Shown one piece after another: positions 91 to 10,081 of a stretch of 40,980 bases of DNA. Numbering within the stretch: position 1 is the stretch's first letter; every line of letters begins with the position of its first letter. A model generated the notes under the pieces. It did not search any database. It worked only from the letters and a program-made list of their open reading frames with translations, and was not told where the DNA came from. A program made the translations under genes and the position numbers. Location: positions 1 to 40,980 of the forward strand of contig JAABRY010000009.1 in assembly GCA_011390645.1 (NCBI GenBank), given 5' to 3'. This DNA is from Gemmatimonadota bacterium (GTDB taxonomy: Bacteria; Gemmatimonadota; Gemmatimonadetes; Gemmatimonadales; GWC2-71-9).

Positions 91-102
91 TTTCCCATCC
101 AG

Positions 103-175
103 AGCTCGCGATCGGGATTGAACCGATGACCTCATCCTTACCAAGGATGTGCTCTACCAACTGAGCTACGCGAGC
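103..175 (-). tRNA. tRNA-Thr(GGT)
   Basis: Read on the minus strand, a perfect seven-pair acceptor stem GCTCGCG/CGCGAGC closes a 73-base cloverleaf. It has the D-arm GTAGCTCAGTTGGTAGAGC and a T-arm with GGTTCAATCC. The anticodon stem CATCC/GGATG closes loop TTGGTAA, giving anticodon GGT (Thr). The discriminator base is T and no CCA is encoded. It is the last of four tRNAs in the operon. Confidence 0.96.
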
Positions 176-242
176 AACTGCCGTGTGCTACCCTTCCTTC
201 AATCGCGCTGCTGCCTTGGGCCGGCCAACCGGGGTCGGCCAG

Positions 243-315
243 AGCGGGCGACGGGACTCGAACCCGCGACCCTCAGCTTGGAAGGCTGATGCTCTACCAA
301 CTGAGCTACACCCGC
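243..315 (-). tRNA. tRNA-Gly(TCC)
   Basis: Minus-strand 73-base cloverleaf with acceptor GCGGGTG/CGCCCGC (one G-T pair). The D-arm is GTAGCTCAGTTGGTAGAGC and the T-arm contains GGTTCGAGTCC. The anticodon stem TCAGC/GCTGA closes loop CTTCCAA, giving anticodon TCC (Gly). The discriminator is T, as is usual for Gly tRNAs, and CCA is not encoded. It is third in the operon. Confidence 0.96.
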
Positions 316-352
316 AACGCGTCAACACACCTACCGGTTCCTGCGTCGTGCA

Positions 353-437
353 TGGTGGGGGTAGGATTCGAACCTACGTAGGGCGTAAACCCGGCAGATT
401 TACAGTCTGCTGCCATTAGCCACTCGGCCACCCCACC
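353..437 (-). tRNA. tRNA-Tyr(GTA)
   Basis: Minus-strand 85-base class II tRNA with a long variable arm, as expected for bacterial tRNA-Tyr. The acceptor is GGTGGGG/CCCCACC and the discriminator is A. The anticodon stem GCAGA/TCTGC closes loop CTGTAAA, giving anticodon GTA. The T-arm contains GGTTCGAATCC. CCA is not encoded. It is second in the operon. Confidence 0.96.
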
Positions 438-480
438 GCGGCCTGTCCATCGCCGGTTGTCCTCTTGCCCTCATCACTGG

Positions 481-553
481 AGCTGACGGCGGGAATCGAA
501 CCCACAACCGCCTGATTACAAATCAGGTGCTCTGCCAATTGAGCTACGTCAGC
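481..553 (-). tRNA. tRNA-Thr(TGT)
   Basis: Minus-strand 73-base cloverleaf with a perfect acceptor stem GCTGACG/CGTCAGC. The anticodon stem CCTGA/TCAGG closes loop TTTGTAA, giving anticodon TGT (Thr). The T-arm contains GGTTCGATTCC. Unlike the other three tRNAs it is followed directly by an encoded CCA (478-480), which may be chance. It is the first gene of the operon, about 23 bases after the predicted transcription start. Confidence 0.96.
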
Positions 554-5467: not shown

Positions 5468-6550
5468 TTACGTCGCGCGTCGCGCCCGCTTCTGATGCGC
5501 GGCCTGCTCGATCGCCTCGTACAGCGGCGCCGGATCGAAGCGGACCGGGTCGGTGCACGGCAAACCGGTCTCGGCCGCCGCGCGTTCACAGGCGGCGCGC
5601 GCTTCGTCGTCGGTCATGTCGTAGGTGTTCATCGCGATGCCGACGACCTTGGACGGATGCACCATGCCCGCAATGCGCTCATACACCTCGACGTATTCGC
5701 TGAGCGGCGGGATGCGCAGCCAGGAGGCCTTGCGATAGTCGCCGATGTACTCGCGACTGGCCTGATGACAGAGGATCATCGCATCCGGACAGGATCCGTG
5801 CAGCAGGCCGAGCGTCACGCCGGAGTAGCCGGGATGGTTGATGCTACCCTGCCCCTCCACGAGCACCACATCGGCGCCCTCGGCACCCTGCACCGTGATG
5901 CGCTCCGCTGCCCCGGCAATGAAGTCGGCGACGACCGCATCCACGCCGATGCCCCAGCCCTCGATCATGATCCCGGTCTGACCCGTGGCGACGAACCGGG
6001 TACGCATGCCCCGCTTGTTGAGTCCGCGAACGAGTTGGAGCTGCGCCGTCATCTTGCCGACGTTGCAATCGGTGCCCACGGTCAGCACGACGAGCGGTTC
6101 GAGTTGCTTGGCGAGCCCGCCCGCGACCGGGAGATCGGCCGGTGGGCGGCGGATATCGGTGATGGTGCGCCCCCCGATACGTGCGGCTTCCGCGAGGATG
6201 GGGTCGTCATTGAGGAAGGTGTGCAGGCCGCTCACGATATCGCAGCCACCGACGAGTGCCTCGCGCAGCCACTCGCGCCAGGCATCCGGCAAGCGACCAC
6301 CGGTGGGCGCGATCCCGATGAGCACCGAGGTGGCACCGAGCGCCAGGCCTTCGGCCATCGAGCCGACGACGGGAATCCCCCCCCCAAAGCCGAGCACATC
6401 GTGTGCGGTGCGGCCGGCGTGGCCGCGGTCAAGCACCGCGACCACCCGGTCGGCCTGGTAACGAATGATGGAGTTGGCAGTCTTCGAGGTCATCGGACCG
6501 AAGTCACCGTCCGCGAGGATCAGGTGCTTCGGGGCGGTGGCGGTCGTCAC
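5468..6550 (-). CDS. DUF1611 family P-loop protein
   Basis: A protein of 360 residues of the DUF1611 family, which includes DgcN-type proteins. Those act with DgcA in D-glutamate/N-acetyl-D-glutamate metabolism in some bacteria. The N-terminal part has a Rossmann-like start (ILADGDFGPMTSKTANSI) and the glycine-rich GFGGGIPVVGS. A P-loop GTDCNVGKMT lies at residues 159-168, and a Walker-B-like VVLVEGQGS follows. It starts at a GTG that overlaps the pspA stop codon (GTGA), so it is the last gene of the pspA operon. No DgcA-like epimerase is next to it, so the specific substrate is not known here. A nine-C run falls in the GFGGGIP codons. Confidence 0.85.
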   Translation of the reverse strand: MTTATAPKHLILADGDFGPMTSKTANSIIRYQADRVVAVLDRGHAGRTAHDVLGFGGGIPVVGSMAEGLALGATSVLIGIAPTGGRLPDAWREWLREALVGGCDIVSGLHTFLNDDPILAEAARIGGRTITDIRRPPADLPVAGGLAKQLEPLVVLTVGTDCNVGKMTAQLQLVRGLNKRGMRTRFVATGQTGIMIEGWGIGVDAVVADFIAGAAERITVQGAEGADVVLVEGQGSINHPGYSGVTLGLLHGSCPDAMILCHQASREYIGDYRKASWLRIPPLSEYVEVYERIAGMVHPSKVVGIAMNTYDMTDDEARAACERAAAETGLPCTDPVRFDPAPLYEAIEQAAHQKRARRAT

Positions 6551-7311
6551 TTGCTATCCGTCTCCTCGATGATCTCTGCGTCGTCGGCCTCGTCCTGCCC
6601 CTGGCCGATCTGCTTCGGGGCCTCGCCCTTGCCGCCCCCGAGCATGCCCATCTTGGCCTTCAACTCGAGCAGTTGCTGGTCGGAACTGCCATGGTACTCG
6701 AGCTGCTCGAACTCCTTCATCAGGTTGTCACCGGTGAACTCCTGCTGGAGCTCCGCGGCGGCCAAGGCCTTGCGCTCGTTCGACTCGATCTTCTCCTGCA
6801 TCCGCTCGAACGACTCGAAGGCGCTCTTGTCGCCCATCCCCGAGAGGGTGTCCTGGATGCGCTGCTGCGCCTCGGCGCGACGCGCCCGCGCAATCAGGAT
6901 GTTCTTCTTGCGCTTCGCCTCCTCGATCTTTTCGTTGAGCTGGCGCAGCGAGGACTTGAGGCTCTCGGTCTCCTGCTTGCTCTTGACCCAGGTCTCGTGC
7001 AGCGACTGCGCACCCTGCAGTGCCTCGTTGTACCGCATCAGGGCCTGCTTGGCGAGGTCGTCACGCCCCTCCTGCACGGCGAGCATGGCACGGCGCTCCC
7101 AGTCCTCCGCCTGCTTCTTCATGGCGATGGCGTCGGCCTCGAGCTTCTTCTCGTCGGCAATCGCCTGCGCCACCTGCTGACGGGCCTTGTCCAACTGGCT
7201 GCGCATGTCGGTGATCAACGTGGTCAGCATCTTCTCGGGATCTTCCGCCCTTGAGATGAGGTCGTTGATGTTCGAGCGCAGCATCGTCGCGAATCGTTCG
7301 AAGATGCCCAT
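6547..7311 (-). CDS. pspA: PspA/IM30 family membrane-stress protein
   Basis: A protein of 254 residues with the PspA/Vipp1 organisation. It starts MGIFERFATMLRSNINDLIS (amphipathic helix and hairpin start) and continues with SRAEDPEKML and a long charged coiled coil rich in Glu, Lys, Gln and Ala. PspA proteins are peripheral inner-membrane proteins that polymerise and stabilise damaged membranes. The C-terminal tail (about residues 225-254) is acidic and variable. The gene lies three bases after the YbjN-like gene, with GGGAG nine bases before its ATG. The four small membrane proteins farther upstream on the same strand are plausible membrane docking partners. Confidence 0.93.
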   Translation of the reverse strand: MGIFERFATMLRSNINDLISRAEDPEKMLTTLITDMRSQLDKARQQVAQAIADEKKLEADAIAMKKQAEDWERRAMLAVQEGRDDLAKQALMRYNEALQGAQSLHETWVKSKQETESLKSSLRQLNEKIEEAKRKKNILIARARRAEAQQRIQDTLSGMGDKSAFESFERMQEKIESNERKALAAAELQQEFTGDNLMKEFEQLEYHGSSDQQLLELKAKMGMLGGGKGEAPKQIGQGQDEADDAEIIEETDSK

Positions 7312-7314
7312 CGG

Positions 7315-7701
7315 TCAGGACTCCCGGTACGGGGCAAGACTGCCCAGGTGCGAAGCGAGCGCGAGGGAGAGCGAATCCACGCTCGCCTCGAAGTCAGTGA
7401 AATCCACGCGGTCCAATTCCATCGCGGCCGTGAGCACGACGTCGTTGCCTTCGACGCCGTAGGCCCCGCGAACGAGGTCCCGCGCGTTGTACTCCATCAG
7501 CTTGCGGCAGAGCTCGCCGGCACGTGTCGTGTCGGTCGGGAGTGCCATCACCCGAATCCGCATCACCAGGACCGGCGGCGCATACTGGACCGCGATCTGG
7601 GTGCCGTCCGGCGTCCGGACCAGCCAGAGGTCGTCGGTGGTCGTCTCGACCGCGAGGTCGAGGCGGTCGAAGAACGACTGCACATCATCATGCGTGATCA
7701 T
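7315..7701 (-). CDS. YbjN-like protein
   Basis: A protein of about 128 residues with the alpha-beta pattern of YbjN/type III chaperone-like proteins. Strands such as DDLWLVRTP and QIAVQYAPPVLVMRIRVMAL are followed by helices (GELCRKLMEYN) and the conserved-looking VRGAYGVEGNDVVLTAAMELD. No catalytic residues are evident. Such proteins are usually small cytoplasmic regulators or chaperones, so an accessory role to PspA is inference from the neighbourhood. The ATG at 7701 is preferred because AAGGGGG lies five bases upstream. A GTG two codons earlier is possible. It lies between the small membrane-protein block and pspA. Confidence 0.75.
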   Translation of the reverse strand: MITHDDVQSFFDRLDLAVETTTDDLWLVRTPDGTQIAVQYAPPVLVMRIRVMALPTDTTRAGELCRKLMEYNARDLVRGAYGVEGNDVVLTAAMELDRVDFTDFEASVDSLSLALASHLGSLAPYRES

Positions 7702-7783: not shown

Positions 7784-8146
7784 TCAGGCCCCGTCGTGCT
7801 CAACCTTGGTGCGATCGGCCAGGAGGCGTTCGGCAAAGTCTTGTCGCTCCTCCAGCTCCAGTACCCGTGCCCGCAGTTCGTCGAGTTCGGAGTACACCTC
7901 GGACGGGACATCGAGGCTCTGGGGCGCTTCCGCGGCTGCCCCGGAGATGCGTGCGCCAATCGCCTGGCCGACCGGTCCCCGCAGGATCACCATCGCCGCA
8001 ACCATGGTCATGACCCAGATCGGGATGGATGCGGGCCCCAGGTTCTCTGTCGCTGTCATCAACCCGCCGAACAGCATCACCGCCGACACCGCCAGCGCGA
8101 CCGGTAGCCACCACGATCCGCGGGCATGTCGCATCTCAACGCCCAT
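7784..8146 (-). CDS. Small membrane/coiled-coil protein, paralogue 4 of 4
   Basis: A protein of 120 residues. Two hydrophobic segments (about 12-30 and 38-55) are followed by LRGPVGQAIGARI, then a helix rich in Glu and Leu ending LEERQDFAERLLADR. It shares both the membrane-proximal GPVGxAI and the terminal ERxxFAERLL motif with its neighbours. PspB also has one membrane segment followed by a coiled coil, so a PspB-like membrane partner of PspA is a reasonable inference, not an assignment. The ATG at 8146 is chosen because GGAGGT lies six bases before it, which makes it overlap the preceding gene by 11 bases. Confidence 0.8.
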   Translation of the reverse strand: MGVEMRHARGSWWLPVALAVSAVMLFGGLMTATENLGPASIPIWVMTMVAAMVILRGPVGQAIGARISGAAAEAPQSLDVPSEVYSELDELRARVLELEERQDFAERLLADRTKVEHDGA

Positions 8147-8522
8147 CGCCCACCTCCATTCGCCGCGAGGACTGCTCCGCGATCATGCGCTCGGCGAACT
8201 CCAGGCGGTCCTCGATTTCCATGAGACGCTGTGTCTCGAGCGAGAGCTCGTGGAGTCGATCTTCCAGTTCCGCGACGCGGCTACTCAGCAACATGTCGGA
8301 CTCGGCCGCGCCACCCTCGAGGATGCTGGCGATGGCCTTGCCGACGGGGCCACGGAGGAGGAGCCACCCCATGCCGCCGAGGCCCAGCAATCCGGCCAGC
8401 ACCGGCCCGGGGTGGTCGGCATAGCGGGCTGCGTCCACGACAAGCGCAAGGACAATCGAGGCCATCCCGGCCAACCCGAGGACCAGGAACATCCCGGCCC
8501 CGCGCGACAGCCGTCCGCTCAT
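8136..8522 (-). CDS. Small membrane/coiled-coil protein, paralogue 3 of 4
   Basis: A protein of 128 residues. It has two hydrophobic helices (about 10-30 and 40-57), the motif LLRGPVGKAIASIL just after the second, and a long amphipathic helix ending in IEDRLEFAERMIAEQ. The layout matches the paralogue downstream: membrane hairpin, GPVGKAI, coiled coil, terminal FAER motif. Its ATG overlaps the stop of the preceding paralogue (ATGA), which points to coupled translation. Function unknown; probably acts at the inner membrane with the downstream PspA. Confidence 0.8.
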   Translation of the reverse strand: MSGRLSRGAGMFLVLGLAGMASIVLALVVDAARYADHPGPVLAGLLGLGGMGWLLLRGPVGKAIASILEGGAAESDMLLSSRVAELEDRLHELSLETQRLMEIEDRLEFAERMIAEQSSRRMEVGDGR

Positions 8523-8866
8523 GCCCCCCCCTCGCGCGGGAGGCGCACCGTCTCGCGCGCCTCGGTCAGCAGTCGTTCCGTGAAATCCACGCGCTCCTCC
8601 AGTTCCGCCATCCGAGGCGCTTGCCCTTCGAGTTCGGCCACGCGTTCGCGAAGGTGCACCAGCTCATCCATCAGGTCGTCGGTCACGACACCGCGCTCGA
8701 GCCGCCGAGCCCACGCGCGCACGATGGGATAGACCAACACGACGCCAATGAACACCATGAGTCCAAGCGTTGCGACCGTCTCGATCCACGCCGGCGGACC
8801 CGTGTCCACGATGATCTGCGAGATCTCGGGTGGCACCGGCGGTGGGGCGGGAGCGTCCTGGATCAC
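8519..8866 (-). CDS. Small membrane/coiled-coil protein, paralogue 2 of 4
   Basis: A protein of 115 residues with a proline-rich N-terminus and one clear membrane helix (about 28-50, TVATLGLMVFIGVVLVYPIV). A coiled coil follows, MDELVHLRERVAELEG, and then the motif ELEERVDFTERLLTEAR. It is the most divergent member, because the GPVGKAI motif after the membrane segment is replaced by YPIVRAWARR. It starts with GTG, overlapping the upstream TGA (GTGA). The N-terminal segment has the look of a periplasmic tail, but topology is inferred. Confidence 0.78.
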   Translation of the reverse strand: MIQDAPAPPPVPPEISQIIVDTGPPAWIETVATLGLMVFIGVVLVYPIVRAWARRLERGVVTDDLMDELVHLRERVAELEGQAPRMAELEERVDFTERLLTEARETVRLPREGGA

Positions 8867-9114
8867 GGCGCCTCCTTCGACTCACGTCCATCAGTGAGCA
8901 ATCGCTCCGCGAAGTCGAGCCGCTCGTGGATCTCATTGAGTTCCATGCGCATCCGGTCCAGCTCGTCGTAGAGTGCCGGGTCCGGTTCGAGCGGGGGCAG
9001 TGGTTGCTGACCGTGGCGAATCCGTTCCGCGAACGCCTTGCCGACGGGCGTGAGCGAGATCAGAAAGATCGCGCCTCCACCAAAGATGAAGGTGATCGCG
9101 AGGACGCCTTCCAT
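8863..9114 (-). CDS. Small membrane/coiled-coil protein, paralogue 1 of 4
   Basis: A protein of 83 residues and the first gene of the pspA operon. One N-terminal membrane helix (MEGVLAITFIFGGGAIFLIS) is followed by LTPVGKAFAERI, a short linker, and YDELDRMRMELNEIHERLDF, which leads into AERLLTDGR. With about 80 residues it is close to PspB in size and plan. The ATG at 9114 is chosen because GGAGGT is placed six bases upstream. A longer reading from 9168 would add a non-conserved glycine-rich leader. I could not recognise a convincing promoter in the short gap before it, which faces the end of the serine dehydratase genes. Confidence 0.8.
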   Translation of the reverse strand: MEGVLAITFIFGGGAIFLISLTPVGKAFAERIRHGQQPLPPLEPDPALYDELDRMRMELNEIHERLDFAERLLTDGRESKEAP

Positions 9115-9199: not shown

Positions 9200-10081
9200 C
9201 TACTTCTTGCGGGGTTTGAGCTGCACCAGCCGCTCGCGCGCGAGTTTGCGGCCAGTTGGCGTCGCGGCGAGGCCGCCGCCTGCCGTTTCGCGGTAGCGGA
9301 CGTCCATCTCACGCCCGATCTGTCCCATGGTATCGATCACTTCATCCACTGGAATCGGGAATTCGACCCCCGCCAGCGCCATCTCGATCCCTGCGAGCGC
9401 CATCGCGGCGCCCGTGGCGTTGCGATAGACGCAGGGCACTTCGACCAGCCCGCCCAGCGGGTCGCACACGAGGCCAAGGGTGCCCTGCATCGTCAGCGCC
9501 ACGGCGTGCATCGCCTGGCGCGGGGTACCGCCGAGGAGTTCCACGCCGGCAGCCGCAGCCATCCCGGCAGCGGCGCCGGTCTCCGCCTGGCATCCCCCCT
9601 CGGCCCCGCTCAGTGACGCGCGGACCGCCACGACCGCACCGACGAGTCCCGCCGTGGCGAGCGCGCGAATCATGGCCTCTTCCGAGACCGGGTGTCGCCT
9701 CGCGATGCCAAGCAGGGTGCCAGGCAACACGCCTGCTCCACCAGCGGTCGGCGCGGCGACGATCACCCCCATCGCGGCGTTGACCTCCTGCACCGCCAGG
9801 GCGGCGGCAAGCGCGTCGGTGAAGATGGTATTCGCCAAGGGACCACGCGCGTTGGCGAGTCGGTGGGCGTCGCCACCCACGAGTCCACTGACGGAGTGGA
9901 GGTCGCCCACGAGGCCGCGCTCGACGGCGCCCTGCATCACCTTGAGCGCCCGGCGCAAGCCTGCCTCGACCTCCTCCCGTGTGCGAATGCCGGTGTCGGC
10001 CTCCGTGCGCAGCGCCAGTTCACCGAGGGAAATGCCGTCACGTTCCGCGGCGTCGACCGCCTCGAGCAAGACGTCGTACAT
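9200..10081 (-). CDS. sdaAA: L-serine dehydratase, alpha subunit (iron-sulfur)
   Basis: The catalytic half of the two-subunit, iron-sulfur L-serine dehydratase (serine to pyruvate plus ammonia, cytoplasmic). Its 293 residues carry the family signature SLSGAEGGCQAETGAAAGMA. Further cysteines in GLVCDPLGGLVEVPCVYRN give the three cluster-binding Cys residues. The N-terminus (MYDVLLEAVDAAERDGISL) also fits. It starts within the stop of sdaAB (TGATG overlap), so the two subunits are translated together. This is the Firmicutes-type split enzyme with the beta subunit first, not the single-chain enterobacterial form. Confidence 0.93.
   Translation of the reverse strand: MYDVLLEAVDAAERDGISLGELALRTEADTGIRTREEVEAGLRRALKVMQGAVERGLVGDLHSVSGLVGGDAHRLANARGPLANTIFTDALAAALAVQEVNAAMGVIVAAPTAGGAGVLPGTLLGIARRHPVSEEAMIRALATAGLVGAVVAVRASLSGAEGGCQAETGAAAGMAAAAGVELLGGTPRQAMHAVALTMQGTLGLVCDPLGGLVEVPCVYRNATGAAMALAGIEMALAGVEFPIPVDEVIDTMGQIGREMDVRYRETAGGGLAATPTGRKLARERLVQLKPRKK

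What the first reader, a model, noticed from the sequence alone, without database searches (positions are those of the whole stretch)
7784..9114. Four tandem PspB-like membrane/coiled-coil paralogues in a pspA operon
Four consecutive genes of 83-128 codons overlap one another. Each has a membrane segment, a charged coiled coil and a C-terminal (E)RxxFxERLL-type motif, and three also share GPVGKAI or a close form after the membrane segment. They are followed by YbjN-like, pspA and DUF1611 genes. Known Psp systems have single PspB and PspC anchors. A coupled set of four divergent paralogues suggests a hetero-oligomeric membrane platform or a graded sensor for PspA.
Basis: partly seen in the sequence, partly recalled or inferred. 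Interest (0 to 1): 0.7.

Follow-up and report, generated by a model that had tools for sequence, protein, structure and literature searches.

The report
Variable arrays of PspB-like membrane anchors
In one lineage of Gemmatimonadota bacteria, the stress gene pspA is preceded by a tandem array of one to ten different small membrane proteins that all end in the same cytoplasmic helix, and the same helix also ends other, scattered membrane proteins, which suggests a shared socket for a common membrane-protection partner.

Summary
Four overlapping genes (window 9114-7784, minus strand) encode membrane proteins that share a C-terminal helix with the core E-R-x-D-F-x-E-R-x-L. They are followed by a CesT/Tir (YbjN-like) gene, pspA and DUF1611.

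In 46 of 48 pspA loci fetched from this family and a sister family, one or more such genes lie upstream of pspA (arrays of 1-10, median 4). The sister family that includes Gemmatimonas has none. Other families of the phylum carry a single profile-homologous gene at the same place, so this is a lineage-specific expansion of a PspB-like gene. The four fail the Pfam and NCBIfam PspB cut-offs. One unlinked relative passes Pfam PspB and also matches the array profile. PspC is absent from most of these genomes.

Unexpectedly, the same C-terminal helix also caps unlinked proteins: 2 in this genome and up to 16 in one relative. They include TM2-domain and zinc-ribbon proteins. The module is therefore a promiscuous, undescribed C-terminal domain, not a pspA-only feature.

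My best explanation is a set of diverse membrane anchors presenting one cytoplasmic docking or assembly helix, most likely to PspA. That binding step is inferred, not shown.

The parts
8863..9114 (-). g1, 83 aa: one TM segment, juxtamembrane TPVGKAFAERI, C-terminal helix with ERLDFAERLL. Member of the widely conserved founder-like subfamily A (MEDILAIxLIFGGG...)
   Evidence: AlphaFold2 mean pLDDT 91.6, helices 2-21, 23-35 and 46-80
8519..8866 (-). g2, 115 aa: proline-rich N-terminus, one TM segment, C-terminal ERVDFTERLL (subfamily C)
8136..8522 (-). g3, 128 aa: two TM segments, GPVGKAI, C-terminal DRLEFAERMI
7784..8146 (-). g4, 120 aa: two TM segments, GPVGQAI, C-terminal ERQDFAERLL (subfamily L, always the last gene of the array in this genus)
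8896..8922 (-). core of the C-terminal module in g1 (RLDFAERLL)
8567..8593 (-). core of the C-terminal module in g2 (RVDFTERLL)
8181..8207 (-). core of the C-terminal module in g3 (RLEFAERMI)
7820..7846 (-). core of the C-terminal module in g4 (RQDFAERLL)
7315..7701 (-). CesT/Tir-type (YbjN-like) chaperone-fold gene, first half of the CesT/Tir-PspA dyad
   Evidence: PF22550 CesT_Tir_1 1.7e-20; YbjN 0.0027, below its cut-off
6547..7311 (-). pspA (PspA/IM30 family), the only one found in this genome
   Evidence: PF04012 1.5e-48; one match in the genome
5468..6550 (-). DUF1611/DgcN-like P-loop gene overlapping pspA by 4 nt; also downstream of pspA in L099 and L108
   Evidence: PF07755 1.5e-73
9200..10081 (-). 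flanking gene, sdaAA-like; upstream neighbour of the array. sdaAA is directly followed by CesT-pspA in genomes that lack the array
   Evidence: sequence; synteny in L066, L069, L088 and L103

Best explanation
The locus is a lineage-specific tandem expansion of a PspB-like gene that sits upstream of the CesT/Tir-pspA pair. Each gene makes a small inner-membrane anchor (one or two TM segments, C-terminus in the cytoplasm). The membrane part, juxtamembrane helix and linker have diverged, while the final ~25-residue helix (ELxER[LV]DF[AT]ER[LM]LA) has been kept almost unchanged. I think the constant helix is a docking or assembly module read by one shared cytoplasmic partner, most likely PspA helped by the CesT/Tir protein, so that different membrane anchors (and scattered TM2, zinc-ribbon and other tagged proteins) can recruit or position the same membrane-protecting machinery at different membrane sites or cues. 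Shown: the genes, operon order, conservation, expansion, predicted topology and the dispersed tagged proteins. Inferred: cytoplasmic docking, PspA as the partner, and any sensing role.
For: Array next to pspA in 46 of 48 fetched loci of families f1 and f3, and none in 13 fetched f2 loci. A single homologous gene lies at the same place in other Gemmatimonadota; profile-profile probability 97.9, E 4e-13. Link to PspB: the unlinked copy L112 passes Pfam PspB (27.2 vs cut-off 25.6 bits) and scores 36.6 bits on the array profile built without it. E. coli PspB scores 17.7 bits on that profile and 0 of 1000 cytoplasmic shuffles reach this. F, E and R of the core are invariant in 79 divergent members, whereas TM and linker columns are not. 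Invariant residues lie largely off the a/d heptad positions, as expected for a partner-binding face (inference). Mean K+R is 3.6 after versus 0.2 before the TM, so the C-terminus is predicted in the cytoplasm. Diverse anchors share the tag.
Against: No interaction data. In E. coli PspB does not bind PspA without PspC (PMC3068692), and PspC is found in only 4 of 47 f1 genomes. The tag also occurs on many proteins far from pspA, and G051 has 13 dispersed copies with none at pspA, so the partner could be something else. Gemmatimonadaceae keep CesT-pspA with no strong tagged proteins, so PspA does not need them there. Some array genomes lack the CesT gene between array and pspA.
Confidence: 0.42

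Rival explanations
1. The constant helix is a self-assembly module. Array members and dispersed tagged proteins form mixed coiled-coil bundles under the membrane (a hetero-oligomeric platform), and PspA is affected only indirectly or through membrane properties.
For: The module is helical and coiled-coil-like (AlphaFold2 helix 46-80; weak hits to coiled-coil families). E. coli PspB self-associates (PMC3068692). All carriers share the same module, which is what self-recognition needs. Overlapping genes favour co-translational assembly.
Against: The most conserved residues lie largely off the a/d positions of the predicted coil, which a simple two-stranded coil would not require. Some genomes hold up to 21 carriers, which would give little specificity.
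Confidence: 0.28
2. The module is a general C-terminal tag for a hub protein other than PspA, and the pspA neighbourhood is only where the ancestral gene happened to sit.
For: Dispersed carriers outnumber linked ones in several genomes (G093 about 16 vs 5; G051 13 vs 0) and lie beside unrelated genes. Two f1 genomes with no detected pspA still carry tags (G067, G087).
Against: Linkage to pspA is kept in nearly all loci of two families, and in single-copy form in other families. The two pspA-less genomes are fragmented and incomplete.
Confidence: 0.22
3. The array is a series of sensors for distinct membrane or envelope signals, with copy number tuned to habitat.
For: TM regions differ strongly between subfamilies, and copy number varies 4-9 within one genus.
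Against: No ligand, stress or expression data; there is little periplasmic sequence to sense with; no promoter signal was found to help.
Confidence: 0.15
4. Coiled-coil convergence or neutral gene amplification without a specific function.
For: Short low-complexity helices are easy to evolve, and copy number is unstable.
Against: Invariant F-x-E-R core across 79 members with 20% mean column identity; dN/dS of 0.12-0.46; conserved first and last genes.
Confidence: 0.04

Closest known systems
PspB (PF06667 / TIGR02976), Proteobacteria
   Same: Small inner-membrane protein, N-terminal TM, cytoplasmic C-terminal helix, encoded beside pspA. L112 aligns PspB RMRERIQALESILD with QMHERIDFTERLLT.
   Different: g1-g4 are below both curated cut-offs; they carry an F-x-E-R core; 1-10 tandem copies; some have two TM segments; they lie upstream of pspA with no PspC or PspF in the operon.
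CesT/Tir-PspA dyad operons (Ravi et al. 2024, PMC11237479)
   Same: The CesT/Tir gene directly upstream of pspA is the same dyad.
   Different: Reported dyad operons carry band-7, spermidine synthase, YjfL-type or polyamine genes; no array of small anchors and no Gemmatimonadota are mentioned in the main text.
SHOCT and SHOCT-like C-terminal modules
   Same: Short C-terminal helical module attached to varied membrane proteins; proposed role in assembling membrane complexes.
   Different: No SHOCT hit in Pfam for g1-g4; a single long helix rather than a bi-helical domain; different signature.
PspB duplicates in psp operons (example AOL22920.1 in PMC11237479)
   Same: More than one PspB-type gene in a psp operon.
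   Different: Duplicates only, in canonical pspABC operons; here up to ten divergent paralogues.

Membership tests
PspB (PF06667 / TIGR02976) | Score above the curated model cut-off | tested here: not met
   g1-g4: no PF06667 hit; only g2 reaches TIGR02976 at 11.2 bits vs 51.7. The array-like unlinked copy L112 does pass PF06667, 27.2 vs 25.6 bits.
PspB (PF06667 / TIGR02976) | One N-terminal TM plus cytoplasmic C-terminal helix | tested here: inconclusive
   Met for g1 and g2; g3 and g4 have two predicted TM segments. C-in topology predicted from charge.
PspB (PF06667 / TIGR02976) | Detectable homology to PspB | tested here: inconclusive
   hhalign with E. coli PspB alone 28.5% probability; shuffle test 0/1000 for E. 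coli and 1/1000 for Klebsiella PspB; transitive link through L112.
PspB (PF06667 / TIGR02976) | Encoded with pspA | tested here: met
PspB (PF06667 / TIGR02976) | Works with PspC | tested here: not met
   No PspC in the operon; PspC in 4 of 47 f1 genomes, and in G000 on another contig. Physical interaction not testable.
CesT/Tir-PspA dyad | CesT/Tir-superfamily gene directly upstream of pspA | tested here: met
   PF22550 1.7e-20; pspA starts 3 nt after the CesT/Tir stop codon
SHOCT domain | Match to the SHOCT model | tested here: not met
   No SHOCT among hits of g1-g4 or among the 25 most-matched families for 79 members (the full list of 93 was not shown).
Any described Pfam domain for the C-terminal module | Consistent hit across members | tested here: not met
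   The most frequent Pfam hit covers 6 of 79 members, weakly.

The most novel reading that the evidence does not exclude
A previously undescribed promiscuous C-terminal module (ER-x-DF-x-ER-x-L) marks a whole set of membrane proteins in one bacterial lineage, encoded partly as a variable array beside pspA and partly scattered on TM2, zinc-ribbon and orphan anchors, and serves as a common cytoplasmic address for the bacterial ESCRT-III-like protein PspA in the near absence of PspC.
Probability: 0.35. Interest if true: 0.82.

Novelty: new variant of a known kind. Interest (0 to 1): 0.6.

Why it matters
How PspA/ESCRT-III-like proteins are recruited to membranes outside Proteobacteria is open; most phyla lack PspB. 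If the tag binds PspA, it gives a short, testable recruitment motif on dozens of proteins and a natural system in which anchors have been multiplied and diversified around one constant docking helix. Even if the partner is something else, the module appears to be an undescribed C-terminal domain linking many otherwise uncharacterised small membrane proteins of Gemmatimonadota.

Tried and rejected
Pfam and NCBIfam scans of g1-g4 gave no membership; weak hits (GspM, bZIP, TgpA_N, SlyX-like PRK models) are generic TM or coiled-coil noise. Pfam PspB over 150 Gemmatimonadota genomes found only L112 above cut-off. PDB profile search hit only channel and coiled-coil chains with E of 0.016 or worse. 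More PspB diversity could not be gathered: plasmid tblastn gave mainly enterobacterial copies, and the E. coli genome could not be searched with the profile. No sigma-70-like promoter or terminator was found. Functional meaning of neighbours of dispersed copies: no common theme. A fold search was not run because a model of separate helices would give meaningless matches. Occurrence outside the phylum was not tested.

Full report
What is there. The window belongs to a 2.93-Mb draft Gemmatimonadota genome (G000, 86% complete). On the minus strand the order is sdaAB-like, sdaAA-like, g1, g2, g3, g4, CesT/Tir (YbjN-like), pspA, DUF1611. g1-g4 overlap by 4, 4 and 11 nt; CesT/Tir to pspA is a 3-nt gap; pspA overlaps DUF1611 by 4 nt. 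The four small genes end in NEIHERLDFAERLLT, MAELEERVDFTERLLT, LMEIEDRLEFAERMIA and VLELEERQDFAERLLA. That pattern occurs only in these four places in six frames of the window and in none of 200 shuffles. Purifying selection on g1, g2 and g4 is clear (dN/dS 0.12-0.46, synonymous sites near saturation).

How conserved it is. I collected pspA loci from named genomes and from unnamed species genomes and searched them with a profile of the module. In the window's family (f1) and a sister family (f3), 46 of 48 fetched pspA loci have one or more members directly upstream; of the two exceptions, G099 is cut by the contig end and G051 lacks them. In the family that includes Gemmatimonas (f2) 13 of 13 fetched loci have none, and the order there (named loci L066, L069, L088, L103) is sdaAB-sdaAA-CesT-pspA. 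Among 39 arrays with upstream sequence, copy number is 1-10, median 4. Of 250 successive gene pairs 141 overlap or abut and 81 more lie within 30 nt. Within the window's genus the counts are 4, 5, 5, 6 and 9, with the same first subfamily (A) and last subfamily (L) and a variable middle. Neighbouring members are more alike than non-neighbours (Mann-Whitney p = 2e-7), with pairs up to 71% identical, so tandem duplication is the source. Only 10 of 199 members have their best match inside their own array, so most subfamilies are older than the species.

Where it came from. Other families of the class carry one gene at the same place, upstream of CesT-pspA (L086, L089, L090, L096, L098, L099 and others), ending in QDFLTRLLE or EEQRFMTRLLE. 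Profile-profile comparison with the array family gives 97.9% probability, E 4e-13. A second related copy, between bshC and murJ, occurs in G000 and G005. For PspB itself the evidence is weaker: E. coli PspB scores 17.7 bits on the array profile, above all 1000 shuffles of its cytoplasmic part, and Klebsiella PspB is reached by 1 of 1000. One unlinked copy (L112) satisfies both the Pfam PspB model and the array profile. I call the family PspB-like, not PspB.

What the proteins look like. AlphaFold2 on g1 gives a TM/juxtamembrane helix (2-21, 23-35), a loop, and a final helix 46-80, mean pLDDT 91.6. Across 79 divergent members (20% mean column identity) F68, E70 and R71 of g1 are invariant and E64, R65, D67 and L73 are at least 90% conserved. 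The juxtamembrane P-h-G-[RK]-A-x-A-x-R-[IL] is the second conserved stretch. With a/d positions at 59, 62, 66, 69 and 73, most of the invariant residues fall outside the coiled-coil core; I read this as a partner-binding face (inference). Basic residues follow the TM (3.6 vs 0.2 K+R), predicting a cytoplasmic C-terminus.

The unexpected part. A search of whole genomes with the family profile shows that f1 genomes hold 2-21 copies. Many lie far from pspA: G000 2, G008 3, G035 4, G023 9, G051 13, G093 16. Of 57 dispersed carriers examined, 44 have a strongly hydrophobic segment (8% of background ORFs do), and in those where the signature is matched it ends 8-24 residues before the C-terminus. 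They include TM2-domain proteins (PF05154; G000 L193 2.3e-17, G093 L184 7.2e-19, and several more by sequence), proteins with an N-terminal zinc-ribbon-like segment (L185, below Pfam cut-off; L208 by sequence), and ~250-aa proteins (L209, L236). Their neighbours share no theme. So the C-terminal helix is a promiscuous module, not in Pfam.

How it probably works. Diverse anchors, one constant cytoplasmic helix, and persistent linkage to CesT-pspA suggest recruitment of PspA (or assembly of a platform for it) at the membrane. Against a simple copy of the E. coli scheme: there, PspB contacts PspA only with PspC present (PMC3068692), and PspC is found in only 4 of 47 f1 genomes. Either the module binds PspA directly here, or it self-assembles, or it binds another hub. 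I put these at 0.42, 0.28 and 0.22. No step beyond sequence and predicted structure is shown.

Relation to the literature. Ravi et al. 2024 (PMC11237479) describe the CesT/Tir-PspA dyad and PspB duplicates; the main texts of that paper and of PMC9239133 do not mention Gemmatimonadota or arrays, and two further searches of the open library found nothing on this. The dyad is known; the expansion and the dispersed module appear new to the sources I could search.

Noticed in passing
L193:2887-3270 (G000 contig C266), also L184, L207, L216, L220, L223, L226, L229, L235, L237: TM2-domain proteins capped with the same C-terminal ERxDFxERLL helix; found in several genomes, including one copy in the window's own genome.
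   Followed up: partly
L194:2962-3252 (G000 contig C201) and L232:2996-3277: A related small protein (ending EENQFVRRLLEE...) lies between bshC and murJ; similar sequences (L251, L254, L255, L257, L264) occur in other families, so it may be a second conserved PspB-like gene.
   Followed up: partly
L116, L117, L180, L190, L199, L224, L236, L112: Several tagged proteins end exactly in -TPV (6 of 195 vs 3 of 2823 other coding-like ORFs, Fisher p 5e-6; post hoc, one of the 3 is itself tagged). The S/T-x-V end resembles a PDZ ligand. Unexplained.
   Followed up: partly
L185, L208 and L209, L236: Proteins with an N-terminal zinc-ribbon-like segment and ~250-aa proteins (L236 without Pfam hits) carry the same C-terminal module.
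   Followed up: partly
G000 contig C261:10192-10365 (L195:2981-3169): A 62-aa PspC-domain protein is present in the window's genome, unlinked to pspA, although PspC is missing from almost all related genomes.
   Followed up: no
L137 (G051): pspA lies in a uvrA-CesT-pspA context with no array beside it, while 13 tagged genes persist elsewhere in the genome.
   Followed up: partly
L128, L134, L140, L141, L146, L149, L152: In one group of genomes the CesT/Tir gene is not found between array and pspA, and the last array member (often with a proline-rich N-terminus) lies 25-28 nt from pspA.
   Followed up: partly
L158 (G018): Two array members appear fused in one frame with a masked residue between them; fusion or assembly artefact not resolved.
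   Followed up: no
window 102-553: Cluster of four tRNA genes (Thr, Gly, Tyr, Thr) on the minus strand.
   Followed up: no
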